DNA of 64,000 nucleotides, from the NCBI GenBank assembly GCA_963920635.1, contig OY987298.1, positions 82,593,454 through 82,657,453 on the forward strand, in the 5' to 3' direction. The notes beneath the pieces were generated by a model. That model ran no database searches and was not told the DNA's origin. It was given only the letters and a program-made list of their open reading frames with translations. Both the position numbers and the translations under genes were made by a program. The DNA comes from Pseudeuparius sepicola (taxonomy: Eukaryota > Arthropoda > Insecta > Coleoptera > Anthribidae). Numbering within the stretch: the stretch's first letter is position 1; the number at the start of each line of letters is the position of its first letter. This document shows positions 32,838 through 46,927 of the stretch, piece by piece.

Positions 32838-34405
32838 TTCAGACCCGATATGTACAATATCAGTTACAATCCCAGTTGTGTAAATTATGGCATGTGAATG
32901 CGCCAAAACCGAATCCGGCGGTGTTGCCAGAGCAAAGGGTCTCATTTTGTACTATTTACATATCATTTTACTTTTATAATATATATATAATATAACGCTC
33001 CTTCCTATAAACTGTATAGCGATGTCATAGATGGATGAGAGCGACGGGAACTGTACCTACTTGAAATTCGCGGTAGTAGTCTTGCCCAGAAAAAGTCTAT
33101 TGTCCGTCAACTTCCCGCGCGTTTTGTAAATGCGACCATCATGAACGTTTTTTGTTGTTGAACACGATTCTAGCGCAGAAATTGGATTTTGAACAATGGA
33201 ATACGCCCGTGCATTTTGATTCCTCAAGTTAAAGAATTTCAAGAATCGTAGATAATCATCTAAAAAATTAAATATCAGTAATTTTTTATCGTTGATAATT
33301 ATCTAAAATATTAATTGTATAGTATGAACAAGATTTTAAGTAGGTGTAAATAATAATTATTATAATATATAAATGTAAATAATAATTATTGTTGGGCGTC
33401 CAAAGACACAATTTTCCCCCCATTGGACTGACATGGTATCTGTTAAGGTTTCTGAGTTCCCCATGTTGAGAACCGACACTGAATCACCCTGTAGTGTAGT
33501 CCAGGGATAACAATAAAAACGTGCTTTATATAATGTATATTCTTTAAATAGGTGTATCCTTGGGGGGTAGGTGACATTTTTCCAAAATATAATAATATAT
33601 TCTATACAAAGTCATTCCTAAATGCGTAGCAAACTAAATAAGACTTTAATTATTTTTTAGAATGGAAGATGATGATTTTATGTTATTTGTCCTTTTAATT
33701 CTAAATAACGTTTATATTTTCCTCCATTTTTAATAAAAACACTAACTTTTGGAGGTAGCTATAGTTTTCGCAGAGCGGAAAACGAATTTATTTTTAAAAA
33801 TGTTATTTCTCTCAAGAGGTGAAGACAGACTGAGGCGTCTAGCCTTGAAATGGATTATATACATGACATTTTTGTGAAGTCAGCCAAGTCTATTATTTCA
33901 TTAAGGTAGACAGTTTAAAGAACATAACTCTATTCAATTTTTTATTGCAAATAATAAAGAACAACATTTTTTTGTTTACGTAATAAACCATAATGAAATC
34001 TCAAATACATGTAGAACTCAGACAAACATAAACGTGTAGAGGGTCGCTAAGAAACTTAACTTTTGTTTGTTAGGCAAAATTCCGTAAAATTTCCTTTACC
34101 CATACAGGGCGATTCAGTTTTATTCTTGAAGGCGTTAAAATGTGGCAGAAAATCTTAAAATAAGTTTTTTGTAATATACAATTTAGTTTGGACATAATGT
34201 TTATTTAAATGTCACCTTACGTTAGGCTGTGATAGTTAAAACGTATGTCTTTGCTTAATTTCTTTCATTATAGTTGTCATGTAAACCACATATTAAGCTA
34301 GTTTTTTGGAACACATTTGGCGTACGGGGCAAGTTATTTCCTTCTGTATCTGGTAGCCCGGGTACAAACCCCAATCATGAAATTATTTTGTTTTCGAAAT
34401 ATACA
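32838..34405. other. no recognisable gene
   Basis: Contains a short second match to CAGACCCGATA (32840), a (TA)n at about 32978, an isolated CACCCTG end near 33490 and an isolated CAGGGCGATTCAG near 34105. These look like orphan ends of CAGGGTG elements. No gene was seen. Confidence 0.4.
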
Positions 34406-34808
34406 TGTTACATCCAGAATATTCCTGACGTTTCACGAAAACTACGCATTACTTTACTTATCATGTTTACCACTTTTAAGAACTGCTGACTCTTTCCTGT
34501 ATTCAGATTTCTGCAGACAATAGTTCCTTAATCAAATTACACTTGTAGATGTTTTTCTCTAGAAAAGATCCAGAAGCTTGCCTAAGCATTTTGTCTCACT
34601 ATAAATACTTCGAAACCCAGAAACCGAGCGTTAATAGTCTTAATAGTTCTTCTTTCTCAGTTCCTAGTTCTTAGTCGAGTTAGTTTCTACTACTTCAAGT
34701 TACGTTGTGTGCCATTCGACGAGCTAATATCGCAAACCAGTGTACAAAGTTAAAACAAATAAATATTCCTTTTTTTAAAAAGTCATTTTCACTGGCACCG
34801 GCGTAACA
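34406..34808 (+). repeat. 5' LTR
   Basis: 403 bp, TG..CA bounded (TGTTAC..TAACA). It carries a TATA box (TATAAATA at 34600-34607), a TCAGT initiator-like motif at 34657-34661 and an AATAAAT polyadenylation motif near the 3' end. Confidence 0.95.
34600..34607 (+). promoter_or_regulatory. TATA box in the 5' LTR
   Basis: TATAAATA, conserved at the same place in the 3' LTR. The base just upstream differs between the two LTRs (CTCAC versus CTCCC). Confidence 0.7.
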
Positions 34809-34960: not shown

Positions 34961-35072
34961 ACTACAGATTTTGTGAGTGGCAATTTTGACTTTTAAAACT
35001 TTATTTTTTGTTGCATTGTTTATTTTTGTGTATTTGTTTATTTTATTTATTTCGAATCATCATTTTTTCAAA

Positions 35073-36230
35073 ATGGTTAACGAACAAGAAGAGGTAGTAG
35101 GAACTAACGAACCACAATACAATTTAAGAGACATTTTCGCTTTAATACCAGAATACGACGGAGATCCGATATCCTTAAACACATTTATTAGCGCATGTAA
35201 AACCGCATTTCAAATATGCGATGAGGAACAGAAATTATTTGTAACAATTAGAATTAAAAATCAACTGCGTGGAAAGGCAGCGCAACTTATTAATAGTAGA
35301 GATTTAGACAAGTGGGATGATATTAATAATTTATTACAAACACATTTCGGAGATCCGCGAGATTTAAATGCTTTGATTTCAGACCTTCAGAGATTACGTC
35401 AAATGCCAAATGAAAATCCATTAACGTTCTGCAATCGTCTAATAAATGTAAATTCTAGAATGCAAAGCGCAATTACTAAACAAAATTTAACTAATGCTCA
35501 AAAGCAAGCGCAATCACAACTTATCGAAGATATGACTCTCAATACTCTTTTAACAGGTCTTGAACCAAAAATTGGTCAAATAATTAGAGCAAGTAATCCA
35601 GATACCGTACTAGAAGCTGTAAACCGAATAAAAATAGAACTTCAACTTACATATTTCGAAAATCAAAGACTTCCAAGACAAAATTATGCAAATAATACCT
35701 TTAATAATCAAAACAAAAAAATTTCTAAACCAAAATTTTGTTCATATTGCAAAAAGCAAGGGCATAACATTCAAGAATGCAGAAGTAAAAATAAAAGACA
35801 TAATGCACCCAGTAATCATTTCCAAAATTCTTATGGAAATCAAAATGAAAGATACAGTTCTAATTTCCAAAGAAATAATAATAATAATTTCTCTAGATCA
35901 AATAATTTTTCTCGACCAAATAATAATTTTAATAGACCGAATAATTTTTCATCTCAAAATTCAAACTCTAGTTTCCCTCGTAACAATTTCCAAAATTTTT
36001 CAAATCAGAGGTAATTTCCCCAACAAAATTCTAGACCTAATTTTCAAAATAACTCCCCTAGAACTCATCACATAAATGCAAAACCAACTTTCCCTTGGAA
36101 CTCAAATCCAACTCCTTCAACTTCGAAAGCACCTTCTATAACTCCAAATTCTTCCCCTAACGTAAATTTTACTCAACCAGCCTCGGACATTACTTCACAA
36201 ATGAGGAATCTGAACATGTCCTCAAAATAG
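35073..36230 (+). pseudogene. gag: gag, one nonsense codon
   Basis: Structural gag precursor. The likely start is the ATG at 35073 (MVNEQEEVVGTNEPQY). The frame is also open 32 codons further upstream, but that extension is hydrophobic and translates the leader. A capsid-like helical region covers about residues 15-210, followed by a CCHC zinc knuckle (CSYCKKQGHNIQEC) and an Asn/Phe/Arg-rich tail. An in-frame TAA at 36012-36014 interrupts the tail, and the frame then continues open to a TAG at 36228-36230. This implies a single point mutation in the last third. A retrovirus-type slip site lies at 36164-36170. Confidence 0.9.
36164..36170 (+). promoter_or_regulatory. candidate -1 ribosomal frameshift site (gag to pol)
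   Basis: A_AAT_TTT in the gag frame, 58 nt upstream of the gag TAG. It fits the X_XXY_YYZ rule. The pol frame is the -1 frame and is open from this point into the protease. I did not identify a downstream pseudoknot by eye. Confidence 0.6.
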
Positions 36231-36876
36231 AACCTGTATACAAAGTAAACTTGCATTGCGAACCAAACGAAGAACTTTACTATATCAAAAATTCAAATAA
36301 TTTTAATTTTTTAATTGATACTGGTGCGTCTATTTCATTAATAAAACCTCATGTAATTCGGCATTTAAATAAAGTTATAACTCCAGAGAATATAAAAATC
36401 AAAGGTATTTCAGACGAAGTATACACTGTCACAGAATCTTGTTTTCTTTTTCTTGGAAAATATGAACTTCCACAAAAAGTTTTTATTTTTAACCTTTAGC
36501 TTTTGACGGAATTTTTGGAACCGATTTTATAAAATTATTTCATGCTTTTATTGACATCCCTGGGAGACAATTAATAACTTATGAAGGAATAGTATCACTG
36601 CATTGTACCTTAGATGATTATCCACAAAATGTAGAAAATATAATTTCGATAGAACCTCGAGTAGAAAAGGTATGTAAGCTTAGAACTTTAAAACATAAAA
36701 ATACTGATGCTATTGTTTCAGCAAAAAATGTTGAAAATGTTTATTTACCTAATGCCTTAGTTCATATAGATAGTAATGGAGAATTTATTACAACAATTTT
36801 AAATAATAACGAGTCTAATAAGGTAGTTAATTTTAAGGAATTAGAAATAGAATCATATAATGAAAATAATTACAAT

Positions 36877-37101
36877 GATCCTACTAATAAAGTAGATGAA
36901 AACGGAGTATATAAAAATGTTTATCCTACAATAAATGTAGATGATTTTGATCCTACTATAAAAGTAGATGAAAATGAAAGTTGTAATTTTAATAATCCTA
37001 CTAATAAAGTAGATGAAGACGAAGTAAGTATTTCTGAGATTTATGTTGATCCTACTGAAAAGGTAGATGAAAATAATACTTATCCTACTATGAGAGTAGA
37101 T
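36877..37101 (+). repeat. coding repeat (D/Y/N)PTxKVDE, six copies, within pol
   Basis: GATCCTACTAATAAAGTAGA-type blocks start near 36877, 36919, 36949, 36994, 37048 and 37078. In the frame that is open from 36502 to 37213 they encode DPTNKVDE, YPTINVDD, DPTIKVDE, NPTNKVDE, DPTEKVDE and YPTMRVDE. The spacers are acidic and asparagine-rich. Spacing is irregular (30-54 nt), so this is a degenerate coding repeat and not a recent satellite. It lies between protease and macro domain. Confidence 0.85.
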
Positions 37102-37254
37102 GAATATAATAATTATGAAGTTAGTAAAGTTGAGAAAATAAAGTCTATGAAGATATTGATGACGATGATGTTTTTATTGCTGATAATGTTACTAAGTTTT
37201 GTATTATTGATATAAAAAATGATAATGAGTATAAAGAATTTAAGAAAAGTAAAA

Positions 37255-38062
37255 GTTTAGATTTTCCTAAGATAATTGAAGTTAACAATAATTTATTTGA
37301 ATTGCCAGAAAGATATTCGCTAGCGCATTGTGTTTCTTTAGACTTAAAAATGAGCGCAGGAATCGCGGCTAGTTTTAAGGAGAAATATAATCAAATTAAG
37401 TATTTAAAAGAGCAAGTTAATAATGTAGGACAAATTGCAATTCTTAAAAATCCAAATAGTTTTGTGTATTATCTATACTAAAATCGAGCAACTCTTACGC
37501 CTAGCGTAAACAAGAGCACGTGCGTTGAAATATCCGCCATAGCCGCACGGAGATACGTCCTTTATTTAATTTTAGTCTTACAATTGTGTACATCAAAATA
37601 TTTCAGACAAGAATTATTGGCTTAATTAAAATGGTTCAAAACAACGATAAATAAATAATTTGTGATTTGTGACAGTGTCTAAATAGCTGAAAACAACAAG
37701 ATAAAACCGAATATCTACACTTTTGCGATCGAGCACGTCACTGTTGCTGAGTCGGGTGAAATTTTATAGCCTACCGACCAATCGCGGATCGTCATTAAAC
37801 ACGTGGTTTTATTTACGCCAGGCGTACGGATTGCTCGATTTTACTATACTAACAAAAATATATTTTTGGCAGAAACCAACGTATAGTTCTTTATGGGTTT
37901 GTTTAAAGGAATTACGGGAACATATTATAAGAAATAATGTCAAACACTTAGCTATGCCTATGATTGGTTGTGGAATTGATAAACTAAAATGGTTCAAAGT
38001 CAAAAGAATGATAAATTTTGTTTTTCGCTATGTAGAAATTGAAATAATTATTTGCAAACTGG
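37255..38062 (+). pseudogene. TARG1/OARD1-like macro domain within pol, split by a MITE
   Basis: Before the insertion, one frame reads SLAHCVSLDLKMSAGIAASF, then EKY, GQIAIL and FVYYL. After it, another frame reads TKIYFWQKPTYSSL, then NNVKHLAMPMIGCGIDKLKW, KVKRMINFVF and EIEIIICKL. These are the ordered hallmarks of the TARG1 (OARD1) branch of macro domains, which bind ADP-ribose and remove it from glutamate or aspartate. The two catalytic positions known in that enzyme, a lysine (LxTK, codon 37855-37857) and an aspartate (GCGxD, codon 37978-37980), are both conserved. The halves are out of frame with each other by one base, apart from the MITE. The domain is in the same orientation and the same open-frame context as protease and RT, so it was part of the polyprotein. 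Confidence 0.88.
37479..37843. mobile_element. 365-bp MITE inserted in the pol macro domain
   Basis: TIRs of about 30 bp: TAAAATCGAGCAACTCTTAC at the left and the reverse of TAAAATCGAGCAATCCGTAC at the right. The host hexamer CTATAC is duplicated on both sides (37473-37478 and 37844-37849). It contains no coding capacity. A 6-bp duplication is not diagnostic, so the superfamily is left open. Confidence 0.88.
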
Positions 38063-41000
38063 AAATTTCAAAAATAAGCCAAAATTTTAAAGAATCACAA
38101 ATACAAATTTTTCCAATCTCTTCTAAAATTTCTGATATAAATAGAAAAAGAAATGTAAGATGTGAACCTTATAAAAAACCTAAAAACATACAAATTTCGT
38201 TAGAAGGAAATCAAAGGGAAATAAAATTCAAAGAACAACCTGAAATCAATAAAGAAAGAATAGTTCAAGGAAATAAAATTACCACCAAAAATAAAGTTAC
38301 ACTTAAAGAAAAATCTCCAAATAATCCTAATTTTAATTTTGAAGCAGAACTAGATAAATTTCTAAAACAACAAAAGGAAAAAGTACGAAATTTAAGAACA
38401 GTTCAAATTTTTAATATTTCTTCATTTGATAGGCAAGTCGCTATTACAGATAATTTACGCTTAGAACACTTAAACGAGGAAGAACGAGAAATTATTACTG
38501 ATCTTTATTTGCAATATTCAGACATATTTTTCCTAGAAGGTGACCAATTAACTTTTACAAATAAAATCAAATATTTAATAAATACAAACGAGTCGAAACC
38601 AATATACACTAAATCGTATAGATATCCACAAATACATAAGCAAGAGGTAAAGTCACAAATAGCAAAAATGTCGGAACAAGGAATTATACAACCTTCTATT
38701 TCACCTTGGAGCTCACCAGTCTGGGTGGTGCCCAAAAATCTAGATGCCAGTGGAAAACAAAAGTGACGTGTGGTAATAGATTACAGAAAGCTTAACGAAG
38801 TAACAGTCGATGATAAATATCCCTTACCAAACATAACAGACTTGTTAGATCAGCGAGGAAAATGTCAATATTTTACTACTCTTGATTTAGCGTCAGGATT
38901 TCATCAAATTGAAATTGATCAAAAAGATATGGAAAAAACTGCATTTTCGGTAGAAAACGGACATTGGGAATTTTTAAGGATGCCATTTGGGTTAAAAAAT
39001 GCGCCCAGTACTTTTCAGCGTGTTATGGATAACATACTTGCAGGCATTCAGAATGAGCGATGTCTTGTATATATGGACGACATAATTATTTATACTCTCA
39101 ATGTATAGAAGAACACGTTTCCCGACTTTCTGAAGTCTTCGATCGATTAAGAAATTCAAATTTGAAAATTCAATCTGATAAGTATAAATTCCTTAGAAAA
39201 GAAGTAGCTTACCTTGGTCATGTTATTACTAAAGACGGAGTAAAACCAAATCCCGAAAAATTAGAAGCTGTAATTAAATTTCCTACTCCCAAGAATCCGA
39301 AAGATATTAAATCATTTCTAGGCTTGGCAGGATATTACAGAAGATTTATCCCAAATTTTGCGAAAATAACAAAACCATTAACTACCCTACTAAAAAAGGA
39401 TGTTCCATTTAATTTTAATGATGATTGTGAAAATGCTTTTAATCAATTAAAAATAGCTTTAACTACCAGTCCAATTTTGAAGTACCCAGATTTTGAAGAA
39501 CCTTTTGTAATAACTACTGATGCATCTGCCTTCGCAATCGGTGCTGTTTTATCGCAAGGACCAATCGGTAAAGATCTTCCAATAGCATACACATCAAGGA
39601 CACTAAATACAGCTGAATCAAAATATAGCGTAATAGAAAAAGAATTACTCTCAATTGTATGGGCCTGTAAGACCTTTCGTCCTTACATTTATGGTAGGAG
39701 TTTTAAATTAGTTACCGACCATCGTCCCCTAACTTATCTTTTTTCAATCAAAGACCCAGGAAGTAGACTTGCAAGGTGGCGTTTAAAATTAGAAGACTAT
39801 AATTACGAAATAACTTATAAACCAGGCAAAATAAACAAAAACGCTGATGCATTATCAAGAATCAAAATCAACCCTATTGAAGAAGCTGTAATTGTTCATA
39901 CTAATCTAAATAATGAACCTTCAACCTCTAAAGAACCTGAATTAACTGATGAAGATATAAATGAACTAGACAACGAATTTGCTAGATTTATGAACTTGTA
40001 CAAGACTCAAGCTTTAATTGACTACTCTAAAGTACAAATCTCTAATACACAGTTACTTGACAAAGATCATAAGGATATAATCGTATTTATTCAACAAGAC
40101 AAAATTAGGGAAATACATGACAAACTAGTTGATGACATTTTTGAAATGGAACCCAAATTCGATTATAATAAAATAAGTATAATGACAAGTCAATCCGTCC
40201 CAAGAAGAACATATTATATTATTGTTTTACCTTATAATCTCGAAATGGCTACACAATTACTTTTCGTTTCTTTGTATAGAGATAAAGATTTTCTAACCAG
40301 CTCTAAAACTTATTATGTTGAAAATAATACAGATTTCCCAATATTAGAGATGTTAAGTTTTATTTATTCAGATAAAGAAATGAGGTTTATAATTTGCCAA
40401 AATATTGTCGAAATCCCGGATGCAGACCAAATCCCAATAGTGATAGATAATTACCATTCAGGCAAATCAAATTTTCACAGAGGAATTAATGAAACAATCA
40501 GACGAATAAGACAAAAATATAATTGGTCCGGACTGACAAAAGACGTCGAAAATTTTATAAAACAATGTGAGATATGCCAAAAAGCTAAAATTTGCAGGAA
40601 AAACTTATCAAATCCTTTGGTCATTACTGAAACACCTCGAGCCCCTTTTGAACGAATAAATTTAGACATTTTAGAAATTCCAACAAGACATTTAGTTCTA
40701 ACAGTTCGCGATGAATTGACTAAATTTGCACAAGCATATCCTGTTGAAAATAAAACTGCAAAAAATGTAGTTAACGTCTTAGTTTCATATTTTCAACATT
40801 ACGATACTCCCTTAAGAATTCATTGTGATAGCGGACGAGAATTTAATAATCAATTAATGAAAGATTTATGTACACTATATAATATTAAATTAATATTTTC
40901 TAGTATCAATCACCCTCAATCTAACGGCTCATTAGAAAGATTTCACGCGACACTACTTGAAATGATAAGAACAATGACTTTAGAAAAACCTGGAGAACAC

Positions 41001-42248
41001 CCTTTACAATTATTACCTTATGATTGTATTTGTTATAATAATTCTATCAATCATACAACAGGTTATTCCCCATATGAACTAGTTTTTGGACATACGGCTA
41101 GTCGCCCCGCCGAAACGTTATATAATGAAGAACAATTAATTTCAAAATACGTCAGAGATCTAAATGCCAAAATAAAACATTATTATGAAATTGCTAGAAA
41201 ACGTACTGATCTAAGAAAATAAAAAGCCAAAGAAAGATTTGACAAACAGAATCCAACCCAACATGAATTTAAGATAGGAGATAAAGTCTGGTTAAAGGAA
41301 TCACAAATCAAAAACAAATTAGCAAACAAGTTTAATCGACCTTACGAAGTTAGAGAAATTTATAAAAAAATCTTGTCTAATCTATAATCCAATAACTGAT
41401 CAAACAACTAAAGTTAATTTTGATATGTTGAAAGAATGCTATAGCAAAGAACAAAATTTGAATCAAACAAACTTAAGGACGGAAATAAAACGTCATCACC
41501 TCGCGACGACCTTCATTTGACCGTGTTCCTAACTAGGATAAATGTTGCTAAAACAGAAATTGTTTACTGGAGTGCAAAAATTCCGCAAGTGTCTGTAAGA
41601 TGGCGCTGGAGTTGGAGAGCGGCCATTGGTACAGAGCGAGAATAAAAAGTAATGTTTCGCGCTAAAATAAGTTTCCGTTCCTTATAAGTTGTTTTGTTGC
41701 CCGGCAAGCAAGGTCGTTCGTCGGAACCAGGGGTCTAGGGGGAGGCAGGCGGACCGACCCCCTTTTTTATACAAATAACAGCACATCGCTCTCATCCTGG
41801 CGTATTTTGGCATTGAAACTGTGAATTGTTAAACACAAAATAATAATATGAATATTTACGCTCCTTTATTTTTCTATATTTTGTCATAGTTATTAAGAAT
41901 ATTGTTGAGTAAAATATTAAGTAAGAGGACTACCTACCGGCTGTCAAATCTACTGTCATGACATAATAATTCTCCCTCAAAACCGCATGAATGATCACAG
42001 CACTTACCCTAACTGACATTTAGAATTTATGTCACTATAGTTTTATCTTTTATCATTCTATTAACTTTTCATTAAGTACTTAATATTGATAAACCGAAAG
42101 AAATTAAAATTCTGTTGTATTTGATCCAAAGTTGACGTAAAGTTGTGAATTTTGTTAGATACGTGAAATACCTACTATTTGCTGATATCTTAATATATGT
42201 ATTATTTTAGCATACATTTAGAGTAATGGAAAATGTAATGTAAATAAA

Positions 42249-42434
42249 TTTTTTCTACAAGCGTGCGGAAAAGTACACTTTTCCGTACGCATTTTAGTTT
42301 AGAAAGTGTCACTTTTCCGCACTACTTTTCCGCACTAGTGCGGAAAAGTGACACTTTCTAAACTAAAATGCGTGCGGAAAAGTAAATGCGTGCGGAAAAG
42401 TGTCTCACTTTTCCGCACGCTTGTAGAAAAAATA
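42249..42434. repeat. palindrome built from GCGTGCGGAAAAGT motifs
   Basis: TTTTCTACAAGCGTGCGGAA at the left is mirrored by CTTTTCCGCACGCTTGTAGA at the right. The centre (CCGCACTAGTGCGG, about 42330-42343) is itself a perfect palindrome. The motif GTGCGGAAAAGT and its complement occur at least eight times up to 42540. Confidence 0.85.
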
Positions 42435-42560
42435 GTGTTCCTAACTCTTGCGGAAAGTGTCTTTTCCACACTCGATTTCTTGGCTGAACGACGCGTAGCG
42501 AACTGCAATCGCGTGCGGAAAAGTGGCACTTTCCGCACTTGTTAGGAAATATACTATATA

Positions 42561-42609
42561 GGTACTACCATAGAAGAATTTACGTAGTAGATTCTTCTAT
42601 GGTACTACC
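42561..42609. repeat. perfect 19-bp stem hairpin
   Basis: GGTACTACCATAGAAGAAT and its exact reverse complement are separated by 11 nt. Confidence 0.9.
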
Positions 42610-44687
42610 TAAATGCTTGCCGGTACATCAACTTTGTGTCAAACATAATAGAATTTTAAAGCGTTAATATAATTTTCTTTTGAAAAAGACATATTCTTAT
42701 CAATATTTTTTATTAATAATAAAAAGTTAATAAAATTATAGAATGATACTCGTATATTATGTTGTATAGCTAGTGATATAAAATAGTTTTTACGAAGTAA
42801 TGACTTTTTAAAATTTTAAGAAATTTTATAAATAGGAAATAGGCGCTTGGCGCTTATGTAACATTAAAATAGAAACGACTTTTTCAAGTTAAACGTTTTG
42901 AAATTGTAACAAATAAGCCAATTTTTAGGGGTTGTATTTTTTAAATATAATTTTTGACAGATAGCGAAAGTCACGTGACCACGTTTGAGTCGGTTATTTT
43001 TCCTTTTTTTTAATCGAAAGGTAACCCCAAAGTTAACTGCATATGTGTTCTATTATTATCCGTTAATAAAAAAATATGTTTAAATTAATAAAAAGATACA
43101 TTTTGCACCATCTTCATTTTTTCCAAAAAGGTTTTTTGGTTATAACTTTTGTTTGACGTTCGATTGTTTTTTTCCAAACGACATTACATTGTTTGGAAAA
43201 AACTGCAACAAACTGGTTTTTAAATCATTAATTTGCCTCAAAAAATACAGAAGATGTTCTTTCGCATCAATATATCGTTTTCTTTTTTCATTTTTTATTT
43301 TCGAGATATGTATTTATCTTAATTATTGCGTTACCTAAAATGTGTGTTTGAATGTAGTGTTAATGCAAACGAAGAAACACCTTATGTACACATAAAAGAC
43401 CATGTTTCATTTCATTGAAAAAACTAAACATAATTTTGCAGAACTTTTAAGCCAGCAATACACTATAGCTACAGAAAACGTGCCGAATCACATTCTTTAA
43501 CTAAAGATATGCCTTTAACAGTAAAAAACACAGTAGACATTCAAGTGACCTTGACAACGTCGTCTGCCTACAAGTGAAAACGTGCGTCTTACATTACACC
43601 TCATAATATGCTTCAACTTTTATGTGATTTTCGTTTTTGAGATATTTATAATAGCTGCATTTATTAAAATGGAACACCCGGTATAGAGAATTTTCGACAT
43701 ACCTATATACATATAGAGACAAAGACATGAATCCTCCCCTAATGTCAGTTTATATGCTAACGATTGTGTTTTCCTCACGAAAAATACATAACGGCGACAT
43801 AACTATAAGAACAACAGTACCGAACCCACACGTATAAATAATGCAAAGTCAACTAAAGCAGTTTTTAGTGCCGCCGTGTACCTTTCAAGCTAAAAATCAA
43901 TGAACCATTGCTAAAAAGGAAGGGGTTAAAATCACAGATCGGAGTCTTTGAGCTACGAGGGTCTCCCGAATATACCTCTTCAAGTTTTATATTATTTTAA
44001 TATTAAAAATTCGTAATTCATAGTATATAATAATATGGAAGTAATACAAAAACATAAAAAAGTAATCAGAAAGCTTAGTTCATTAAATATTATATCGCCA
44101 AAACGTAAAATTGATCATATGAACATAATATATGTAATTATTAAACTGGACCTGTAACAACAGCGTCAACCGTTCATCGATCGTCTGTTTTTCGCGCCAT
44201 CTGATAAATAATAGCCACACTTTTGCATTCCCGCTGCATAATTTAAGGGGTATTTTGCCTATGTTTTTTATTTACAACAAGACTGGATAATTACAATGTT
44301 TATTACCGTGTTTTCGTTCCGAGCATATTCCGAAACCTATGCCAATCTTAACGAAGGTAAAATTCCGGCTCAAGAGACAAAATAGACGAATTTATGCCGG
44401 CATAAAGTTTGAAATTCAAAAAAAAAATCCCACCCATAACTTTTAAACTAGTGTCATTAGTATCTATGGATATTTTAAAAATACCCGTGTTTTTTGTAAT
44501 CCTTTGAAATTCGCTACTTTTTCCAGCTAGTTGGAAATAAAAATACATTGATACAGGCAACCAAACATACAATGGCGAGCCCCCCTTAAATGAAACGGAC
44601 AATATAGAAGAAACTAGGTCAGTAGGTTCAGAAGATGATTAGTCAACACAACAGCATTGGCTGACTAAAGTATTTTGTTTCAGGTTT

Positions 44688-46365
44688 ATGTACCTCGGCA
44701 TTGGTACACTCATCTCAGCAGAATATGCAGAAAATCCGACACAATACTCTCTTAAAACGATTTATAACACTGTAGGGCTTTATTTTCACCAAACTTCAAA
44801 TGTAAAAATTTCTAATAAGTGGACTATTTTGGTACATAAAGACATATACTCTCTTAAAAATGCTTACTTTTATAACGAACAAATTTTAATAGACCTCGAT
44901 AACTTTTTATATACCCCGAATCCACGTATGGAAAGATTCAGAACAGAAATAAAAACTCATTTAAGCTTACTTCACCAAATTTCGAATGACATTAATTTAA
45001 AATTTAGAGATTTAAAATACGATGTTAGTAAAAGATCGAAACGTGGTTTAATAAATGGCATTGGTTCAATTTTTAAATTTATAACCGGAAATCTTGATTC
45101 TTCTGATGGTGAATACTATAATAATTGTATCAATAACTTCAGTTATTAAAAATTTCAATGAAACCTTACGAGTCGATGAAGAAACATTTAATGATGATAT
45201 AAAACAAATTGAAGAGTCTATTTACGATATTACTGATAACCTAAAATTTTATGATGCTAAATTACAAATATTGGAGATTGCTGAGCAACTGATGGAATCA
45301 TACTCTTTTATCGAAACGTCTTTAAGTGACATGCTAAATTCAATTACTTTTGCTAGATTAAACACAATACATACTTCAATAATTTCTCCTATGGACCTTC
45401 ACAGCGAACTAAAACGAATTTCTGAAAATTTGAGTAGAAATAAATTACCTTTTACAGTACAACTAGAAACTATAGGATATTATCTCGATATCTCTGAATT
45501 AAAAGCATTTGAAACTGAAAGAAATTTAGTTTTTGCTATAGAAATACCACTTGTTGAACCTCAAACTTATACAATCTTTCGTATCTATCCAATACCAATT
45601 AAAGACCAAAGAACGCATTTAGTTCATACTCTATTTCCCAGTTCGAATAAATCATATATTGGCAGAAATGATGATTCAAGCCTTTATATATCAATCCAAA
45701 ATTATGAAAATTGTAAAAACATGCAACAAAATATGAAACTGTGTAAAGACTTAGTGCCCGTGCCTATAGACAATGACGCTGTCTGCGAAGCACAACTTTT
45801 AAAGTTCCAAATCCAGATGCCACAAACTTGTGAAAGTGTAGTAGTGAACATGAAAGGATACAATATCTACGTTTTAATCACAAACACATGGTTAATAGTG
45901 ACTGTCGAAAACTTACCAACGACCATTAAGTGCGACGACAAGACGACTTCCCTCGTAATAAAAGAAAACACAATCTTAACAATGGAGAAAAATTGTTTCG
46001 CTTATATAGGAAACATTTATATAAAAGCTCAAAATGAAAAAACTACGAACATTACCTATCCCTACATACCAATAAGGATACCATATGATTGTTGTCACAT
46101 TTTACCTGATGACATTAAGTTACCAGAACTAAAACCATTAAAAATGAATAATATTAATTACGAAAATCTTGAAGTGGCCAAACATCAATTAGATCAATTT
46201 TCCAAAGATATCGACGATTTAATGAATCAAACCTTTGTTGACAAATATTATCCTTGGTTTACTTATTTAACTATTACATTAATTATATCCTTAATAATTC
46301 TTGTATTTACTCTCATTATTACTCAACTATTGTTTATTACTATACCTATTGCTTATTGTAACTAA
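44688..46365 (+). pseudogene. env: env, F-type (baculovirus F-like) fusion glycoprotein, one frameshift
   Basis: Envelope precursor of the provirus. The first part (44688-45149) starts in a short hydrophobic segment just after a TTTCAG splice-acceptor-like motif (44677-44682), as expected for a spliced env RNA. It contains the furin-type site RSKR (45033-45044), followed by a GLINGIGS fusion-peptide-like segment typical of insect errantivirus and baculovirus F proteins. A frameshift near 45147 moves the rest into another frame, open to the TAA at 46363-46365. That part holds a helical region, clustered cysteines and one C-terminal membrane anchor at about 46250-46340, followed by a short tail. 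The single visible lesion is the frameshift. Confidence 0.9.
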
Positions 46366-46521: not shown

Positions 46522-46923
46522 TGTTACATCCAGAATATTCCTGACGTTTCACGAAAACTACGCATTACTTTACTTATCATGTTTACCACTTTTAAGAACT
46601 GCTGACTCCTTCCTGTATTCATATTTCTGCAGACAATAGTTCCTTAATCAAATTACACTTGTAGATGCTTTTCTCTAGAAAAGATCCAGAAGCTTGCCTA
46701 AGCATTTTGTCTCCCTATAAATACTTCGAAACCCAGAAACCAAGCGTTAATAGTCTTAATAGTTCTTCTTTCTCAGTTCCTAGTTCTTAGTCGAGTTAGT
46801 TTCTACTACTTCAAGTTACGTTGTGTGCCATTCGACGAGCTAATATCGCAAACCAGTGTACAAAGTTAAAACAAATAAATATTCCTTTTTTTTTAAGTCA
46901 TTTTCACTGGCACCGGCGTAACA
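46522..46923 (+). repeat. 3' LTR
   Basis: 402 bp. It differs from the 5' LTR by about five substitutions and by the length of a T/A run near the end. Followed by the TACA duplication. Confidence 0.95.
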
Positions 46924-46927
46924 TACA

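What the first reader, a model, noticed from the sequence alone, without database searches (positions are those of the whole stretch)
37255..38062. A TARG1-like macro domain inside an errantivirus pol polyprotein
Between protease and reverse transcriptase the provirus encodes an ADP-ribose-binding macro domain with the TARG1/OARD1 hallmarks HCVSxDLKMSAGIA, KPTYSSL and MPMIGCGIDKLKW. Both positions known to be catalytic in TARG1 (Lys after LxT, Asp in GCGxD) are retained. Errantivirus pol is normally PR-RT-RH-IN. An embedded ADP-ribosyl hydrolase suggests the virus once countered host ADP-ribosylation, as macro domains of some RNA viruses do (inference). I cannot recall this being part of standard errantivirus architecture, but I could not check the literature.
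Basis: partly seen in the sequence, partly recalled or inferred. Interest (0 to 1): 0.92.

Follow-up and report, generated by a model that had tools for sequence, protein, structure and literature searches.

The report
ADP-ribose eraser inside retrovirus-like Pol
A broken insect-type retrovirus in this genome carries, inside its replication polyprotein, a relative of an animal enzyme that removes ADP-ribose tags; sister copies carry it unsplit, and related elements in some other animals carry it in other places, which suggests that retroelements have taken it up more than once.

Summary
Both halves of a TARG1/OARD1-type macro domain lie between protease and RT of an env-bearing errantivirus-like provirus (E below 1e-12 each against human TARG1); both catalytic positions are kept. 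In this copy a 365-bp MITE-like insert splits the domain and Pol is broken, so this copy is dead. But the domain is no accident of this copy: the genome search scored 150 places for each half (capped), 59 of 150 in open frames of 1000 aa or more. One group of families has PR-macro-RT, another RT-RNase H-macro-integrase. Of 48 matching database proteins, 26 also carry RT, RNase H or integrase, with the macro in various places. RT data reject one clade for the window's family, its sister and the RH-macro-IN family (p 1e-4), while their macro domains form one supported clade: exchange between elements, repeated capture, or ancient presence with losses. Between families macro dN/dS is 0.14-0.46. 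Best reading: a packaged ADP-ribosyl hydrolase acting early in infection (mechanism inferred). Fish retroviruses with macro domains are known; my searches listed no report for Ty3/gypsy Pol.

The parts
34402..34405 (.). target-site duplication TACA (left)
   Evidence: read directly
34406..34808 (+). 5' LTR
   Evidence: 395 of 403 columns identical to the 3' LTR
34977..36014 (+). gag ORF (stop to stop)
   Evidence: Ty3_capsid 4.6e-05 and Retrotrans_gag 0.002, both under the Pfam cut-off
36161..36852 (+). protease region and conserved segment after it, in two frames
   Evidence: Asp_protease_2 5.4e-05, at its cut-off; homology to P0004-P0006
36853..37133 (+). acidic linker with DPTxKVDE repeats; start of the stretch absent at this place from P0001, P0002, P0004-P0006
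37266..37478 (+). N-terminal half of TARG1-type macro domain
   Evidence: phmmer 8.3e-13 to TARG1
37473..37478 (.). likely target-site duplication CTATAC of the insertion (left); exact length ambiguous
   Evidence: read directly
37479..37843 (.). 365-bp MITE-like insertion with terminal inverted repeats, splits the macro domain
   Evidence: inverted repeat I2; absent from L002-L008
37844..37849 (.). likely target-site duplication CTATAC of the insertion (right)
   Evidence: read directly
37846..38064 (+). C-terminal half of macro domain, with the K84- and D125-equivalent residues
   Evidence: phmmer 2.3e-13 to TARG1; pattern match
38065..38379 (+). 'link' module, found in families A, B and C at three different places; no Pfam match
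38380..39108 (+). start and middle of reverse transcriptase, interrupted by a stop
   Evidence: RVT_1 5.1e-27 on 38767-39108
39057..41222 (+). end of RT, RNase H, integrase
   Evidence: RT_RNaseH 6.2e-39, Integrase_H2C2 2.2e-16, rve 1.4e-08
44643..46365 (+). env of the baculovirus F type, two frames
   Evidence: Baculo_F 1e-06 and 8.1e-28
46522..46923 (+). 3' LTR
46924..46927 (.). target-site duplication TACA (right)
   Evidence: read directly

Best explanation
An env-bearing errantivirus-like lineage carries a TARG1/OARD1-type macro domain as part of its Pol polyprotein. Being part of Pol, it is expected to be made at Pol dosage, packaged in the particle and delivered with RT and integrase (inference). 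There it most likely acts as an ADP-ribosyl hydrolase through the TARG1 Lys/Asp mechanism, removing ADP-ribose that host transferases put on viral or host proteins, or on viral nucleic-acid ends, between entry and integration (inference). Shown: the domain is under purifying selection between families, changes faster than RT in the one pair compared, and sits in different Pol positions in different lineages. The window copy itself is dead: an insertion splits the domain and pol is frameshifted (shown).
For: TARG1 homology of both halves. The K84 position is K in 64 of 68 domain rows and D125 is D in 62 of 68; the misses are fragments and second copies (the rows include near-copies). 150 scored places for each half (745 and 730 first-look candidates, capped). 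Open frames of 1000 aa or more at 59 of 150 C-half places. Near-identical young copies in families B and C. dN/dS 0.21-0.23 between three family-B types; L009-L024 macro dN 0.20 against 0.046 for RT and 0.030 for RNase H. 26 of 48 database hits also hold RT, RNase H or IN. AlphaFold2 model of the database relative P0040: a 136-column match to TARG1 at rmsd 0.6 A, 51% identity. The viral library also gives close matches of about 140 columns, presumably to the macro part, in Kadipiro virus VP8 and thrips flavi-like and virga-like viruses.
Against: No activity, expression, packaging or host target was tested. For chikungunya virus in Aedes, ADP-ribose binding and not hydrolase activity of the macrodomain is reported as critical (PMC12632316, title and start of abstract in the listing). 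The adenine-site Asp (TARG1 D20; role recalled) is Asn in family A and in 4 of 5 family-B rows. Family C has Ala at G121, fails the strict TARG1 pattern in 4 of 4 loci and has no Pfam Macro match (L013). L025 has lost two conserved glycines. Near relatives do without the domain at this place. Faster change than RT also fits relaxed constraint; A-C macro dN/dS is 0.46, and 0.77 between two near-identical A copies (few changes).
Confidence: 0.52

Rival explanations
1. The domain serves the element's own nucleic-acid chemistry or integration, not immunity: it clears ADP-ribose from cDNA or RNA ends or from DNA breaks made at integration.
For: In 14 of 48 database hits integrase follows the macro in the same protein, mostly with RNase H before it. 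TARG1-like domains are also fused to LIG3-like DNA ligases (seven proteins) and to an XPG-type nuclease (P0068) by their Pfam labels. MACROD1, MACROD2 and TARG1 reverse mono-ADP-ribosylation of proteins and RNA (PMC7237415, start of abstract); PMC8053099 is on ADP-ribosylation of RNA and DNA (start of abstract).
Against: The position varies, and in families A and C it is between PR and RT. Relatives without it at this place exist.
Confidence: 0.25
2. It is a reader: it binds ADP-ribose, on host proteins or on PARP-active chromatin, and does not need catalysis.
For: Binding and not hydrolysis is reported as critical for chikungunya virus in Aedes (PMC12632316, listing). P0039 has integrase, chromodomain and macro in a row; chromodomains as tethers of integrase are recalled.
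Against: Both catalytic positions are kept in nearly every row, more than a pure reader would need.
Confidence: 0.15
3. A passenger: a host OARD1 retrocopy that landed in one provirus and has no function.
For: The window copy is split and broken.
Against: Nine of ten family-A loci show the same arrangement, other families keep it open, dN/dS is about 0.2 in most between-family pairs, and it recurs in other animals' elements.
Confidence: 0.03
4. On origin: the domain was not exchanged between elements. Either each family captured a similar host gene, or the common ancestor had it and many relatives lost it.
For: Different Pol positions; RT rejects one clade for A, B and C, and relatives without a macro before RT lie between them, which separate captures or losses would also give; the host OARD1 of this genome was not available for the tree.
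Against: The link module beside the macro in A and B, and separately in C, suggests shared cassettes; the macros of A, B, C and L025 are one clade (96/95).
Confidence: 0.4

Closest known systems
Human TARG1 / OARD1 / C6orf130
   Same: Sequence, K84 and D125 positions; published TARG1 pattern in 10 of 10 family-A and 12 of 13 family-B loci
   Different: Here a domain of a retroelement polyprotein; D20 is Asn in family A
[quoted passage not shown] 2009, as cited in a passage of PMC4977317; the 2009 paper itself is not held)
   Same: A retrovirus-like element with a captured macro domain; the fish-type hits P0069-P0071, P0073, P0077, P0079 may be these (inference)
   Different: Retroviridae-like; in those hits the macro is after integrase, not before RT
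Ectocarpus Gypsy elements with a NADAR domain at the N end of Pol (PMC12477816, passage)
   Same: A domain linked to NAD/ADP-ribose chemistry inside Gypsy Pol
   Different: Another domain family, brown algae, other position
Errantiviruses of the gypsy kind (architecture recalled)
   Same: LTRs, gag, PR-RT-RH-IN, baculovirus F-type env
   Different: Extra macro and link modules in Pol
Macrodomains of corona-, toga- and hepeviruses (passage of PMC6397177)
   Same: Viral macrodomains with mono-ADP-ribosyl hydrolase activity
   Different: A separate macrodomain clade, positive-strand RNA viruses

Membership tests
TARG1-type macrodomain | sequence homology to TARG1 over the domain | tested here: met
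   8.3e-13 and 2.3e-13 for the two halves
TARG1-type macrodomain | pattern TKx(30,35)Px[IL]GxGxD with K84 and D125 | tested here: met
   window C half matches; 52 of 68 domain rows and 22 of 28 macro loci match, family C 0 of 4
TARG1-type macrodomain | Pfam Macro above its cut-off | tested here: inconclusive
   20.7 bits against 22 in the window; L009 21.0, L024 31.4, L013 none
TARG1-type macrodomain | TARG1 fold | tested here: inconclusive
   met for the database relative P0040 (model mean pLDDT 68, macro part mostly 76-95); the window domain itself was not folded
TARG1-type macrodomain | ADP-ribosyl hydrolase activity | not testable with these tools
   needs the protein
Errantivirus (Metaviridae) | LTRs with a short target duplication | tested here: met
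   LTRs of about 403 bp, TACA on both sides
Errantivirus (Metaviridae) | Gypsy-type gag and PR-RT-RH-IN | tested here: met
   the gag match is under the Pfam cut-off
Errantivirus (Metaviridae) | env of the baculovirus F type | tested here: met
   Baculo_F 8.1e-28
Errantivirus (Metaviridae) | place within the genus on a reference RT tree | not tested
   no named errantivirus was in the RT tree
MITE (insertion 37479-37843) | terminal inverted repeats and target duplication | tested here: met
   49-nt arms, 84% complementary; CTATAC on both sides
MITE (insertion 37479-37843) | many copies in the genome | not tested
   The genome search did not complete
Fish macro-domain retroviruses | macro after integrase, as in the fish-type database hits | tested here: not met
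   macro lies between PR and RT here

The most novel reading that the evidence does not exclude
ADP-ribosylation is a general animal defence against reverse-transcribing elements, and TARG1-type erasers are a repeatedly captured countermeasure that errantivirus-like elements carry in the particle and exchange between lineages as a macro-link cassette.
Probability: 0.3. Interest if true: 0.92.

Novelty: new variant of a known kind. Interest (0 to 1): 0.8.

Why it matters
If the domain works as inferred, it points to host ADP-ribosylation as a pressure on retroelements in invertebrates. Macro domains in several Pol positions and more than one element lineage, with similar folds in some other arthropod viruses, make this testable with a small, well-understood enzyme domain. 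It also warns that searches for TARG1 host genes in insect genomes may meet many retroelement copies; the survey in PMC6397177 kept only proteins of 130-230 residues (passage), which would drop such polyproteins.

Tried and rejected
Protein search with the window N half alone gave no hit among 5 candidates, probably because only proteins of 0.55 to 1.75 times its length are candidates; a longer open frame of a relative gave 48. IMG/VR scans with the macro-linker ORF and with RH-IN confirmed nothing. Rejected: a single retrocopy; an artefact of this copy. The nested place of family B inside the PR-macro-RT macros was not taken as proof of direction: holding the PR-macro-RT macros of this genome together is not rejected (p 0.24). 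The structure model is of a database relative, because the window's two halves were not joined. Paper searches on macro domains and retroelements: searches found none; one search found three, on macroH2A or histones by their listings; some searches listed 25 of 3,918, 25 of 27, 15 of 714 and 15 of 40, so their absence claims rest on listings. Passage finds in PMC13172572, PMC12440569, PMC5408684, PMC9289625, PMC8672886 and PMC12992720 showed no macro domain. For the macro tree 12 own rows were taken from 28 macro loci; of 68 rows 13 were left out: 9 fragments or second copies and 4 near-copies. Own rows with stops (L018, L025, L026; 3 of 8) were left out of the RT tree. One search's script stopped with an error after the tree was built; one search showed the tree. 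The origin rival now includes ancestral presence with losses and went from 0.30 to 0.40.

Full report
What is there. The provirus has LTRs of about 403 bp (395 of 403 columns identical) with TACA on both sides, gag, protease, RT, RNase H, integrase and a baculovirus F-type env. Pol is in several frames. Between protease and RT lies a TARG1/OARD1-type macro domain in two halves: E 8.3e-13 and 2.3e-13 against human TARG1 chains. Residues aligned with TARG1 K84 and D125 are kept. PMC6397177 (passages) says that K84 forms the lysyl-ADP-ribose intermediate and that D125 resolves it, and gives the pattern TKx(30,35)Px[IL]GxGxD. That pattern occurs once in the six-frame translation of the window, here. 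Pfam alone would have missed it: 20.7 bits against a cut-off of 22.

The split. The halves are parted by 365 bp with inverted repeats at its ends (49-nt arms) and CTATAC on both sides, a MITE-like insertion; its copy number could not be tested. It is absent from the seven sister loci L002-L008. In 26 of the other 27 macro loci read, the two halves lie next to each other; one (L021) is unclear. So the window copy is dead, and the split is private to it as far as tested.

The same family elsewhere in the genome. Of the 150 C-half places, 43 are at 84% identity or more, the window's family (A), and 59 lie in open frames of 1000 aa or more (typed). Nine of ten family-A loci read, the window's among them, show PR, repeats, macro, link and RT in that order; in L006 only macro and link were found.

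Other families. Family C (L013-L015, L026; 4 of 4) has PR-macro-RT, and so has L025, whose RT stretch has stops. Family B (13 loci, grouped by macro and link likeness) differs: the RT start lies upstream of the macro in 7 of 13, downstream in none, and RNase H upstream in L017. Three were followed downstream: integrase and then env come after the macro in two (L030, L033); in the third (L036) only a weak integrase match lies about 2.6 kb into the downstream stretch. So in B the macro sits between RNase H and integrase. B's integrase is 34% identical to A's, while RT pieces of L009 are 56-69%. Copies L009-L011 of B are 99.55-99.65% identical and L013-L015 of C 99.9-100% over 2889 bases, so these were active recently (inference); the same ungapped count gave 64-67% for L012 against those and for L022-L024, which it cannot resolve if there are indels.

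Relatives without it here. In the RT tree the rows nearest to A and C are P0001-P0006, from sources that name no host. Five of these six (P0001, P0002, P0004-P0006) run from the conserved segment after protease into RT through a short spacer, with no macro; P0003 starts too late to show the whole junction. Homology to the window stops at about 36852 and resumes between 38266 and 38428, depending on the relative. The stretch between, repeats, macro and link, is an addition at this place. The relatives are partial, so a macro elsewhere in them is not excluded.

Other animals. A search with the macro region of L009 gave 48 proteins (only proteins of 0.55 to 1.75 times the query's length are candidates). 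In 26 of 48, probes for RT, RNase H or integrase also match: in 18 the macro follows RNase H or precedes integrase (integrase after the macro in 14 of these; P0080 also has an integrase match far upstream), in 7 it follows integrase, in 1 (P0052) it precedes protease (protease placed). None of the 48 showed the PR-macro-RT order, so that arrangement has so far been seen only in this genome. Named sources among the 26 are a sawfly (Athalia rosae), a whelk (Nucella lapillus), a fish (Triplophysa rosa) and a bacterial MAG (P0077; likely misassigned, inference); most have no name. The other 22 include host-type proteins of thrips and aphids, beetle proteins (P0033, P0036), LIG3-like ligases, and P0034 with gag and three macro-like stretches. 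Pfam Macro is missing in some clear members (P0035, P0052).

Trees. In the macro tree (55 rows, 139 columns) A, B, C and L025 form one clade (96/95). One clade for all RH-macro-IN proteins is rejected (p 5e-5), so that arrangement arose, or was refilled, more than once. In the RT tree (51 rows, 231 columns) A and C lie with P0001-P0006 (96/96) and B elsewhere. One clade for A, B and C is rejected (p 1e-4); A with C is not (p 0.47). Three histories fit: a cassette passed between element lineages, separate captures from a similar source, or an ancestral macro lost in many relatives and moved in one line. The host OARD1 that would help to separate these was not obtained; the genome search stayed busy through.

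Selection. Macro dN/dS is 0.21-0.23 between three B types, 0.14 for A against L025, 0.21 for A against B, 0.22 for B against C, 0.46 for A against C, and 0.77 between two A copies that differ at few sites (simple counting method, some pairs near saturation). Between L009 and L024 macro dN is 0.20 (dS saturated) against 0.046 for RT and 0.030 for RNase H. This fits a domain that is kept but changes fast; weaker constraint would look alike.

Fold. The AlphaFold2 model of the database relative P0040 (mean pLDDT 68, pTM 0.38, macro part mostly 76-95) matches TARG1 crystal structures over 136-137 columns at rmsd 0.6-0.7 A and 50-51% identity. In the viral library, matches of about 140 columns, presumably to the macro part, appear in Kadipiro virus VP8 (47% identity, 0.8 A) and in thrips-associated flavi-like and virga-like viruses (28-33%, 1.6-2.1 A).

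How it works. Shown: homology, catalytic positions, position in Pol, selection, spread. Inferred: packaging with Pol, hydrolase activity, action on host-made ADP-ribosylation early in infection. For caution: the Asn at the D20 position in A and 4 of 5 B rows, Ala at G121 in C, lost glycines in L025, and the report that binding, not hydrolysis, is critical for the chikungunya macrodomain in Aedes (PMC12632316, listing).

Known or new. A review (PMC4977317, passage) reports macro-domain proteins in fish epsilon-like retroviruses, citing Basta et al. 2009, which is not held. PMC12477816 (passage) reports NADAR domains in Ectocarpus Gypsy Pol. My searches listed no paper on macro domains in Ty3/gypsy or errantivirus Pol, in an open-licence library only and with capped lists. 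So I call it a new variant of a known kind: capture of host enzymes by retroelements.

The host is probably a beetle; this is inference only, from named relatives in Callosobruchus, Acanthoscelides, Tenebrio and Phyllotreta.

Noticed in passing
window 38065-38379; L009 1993-2265; L032 257-571 (minus): A conserved 'link' module of about 90 aa without a Pfam match: after macro and before RT in family A, after macro and before IN in B, its own short ORF between IN and env in C; not found in P0001-P0080.
   Followed up: partly
window 36876-37103: DPTxKVDE repeats between protease and macro, matched in family-A loci and not in the B, C or L025 loci read.
   Followed up: partly
window about 41500-44600: About 3 kb between the end of integrase and env without known coding, with strong inverted repeats at 42248-42614; likely further insertions.
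   Followed up: no
P0039: Database protein with integrase, chromodomain, macro domain and a rhabdovirus-type glycoprotein fusion domain match.
   Followed up: no
P0049, P0050, P0059, P0062, P0064, P0066, P0072; P0068: TARG1-like macro domains fused, by Pfam labels, to LIG3-like DNA ligases, and one to an XPG-type nuclease.
   Followed up: no
P0034: Gag-type protein followed by three macro-like stretches; the first keeps every position checked, the third has lost most.
   Followed up: no
G000:C11:22211601 and 22219674: Two macro-bearing places 8 kb apart with the same open-frame length and score, a likely tandem arrangement.
   Followed up: no
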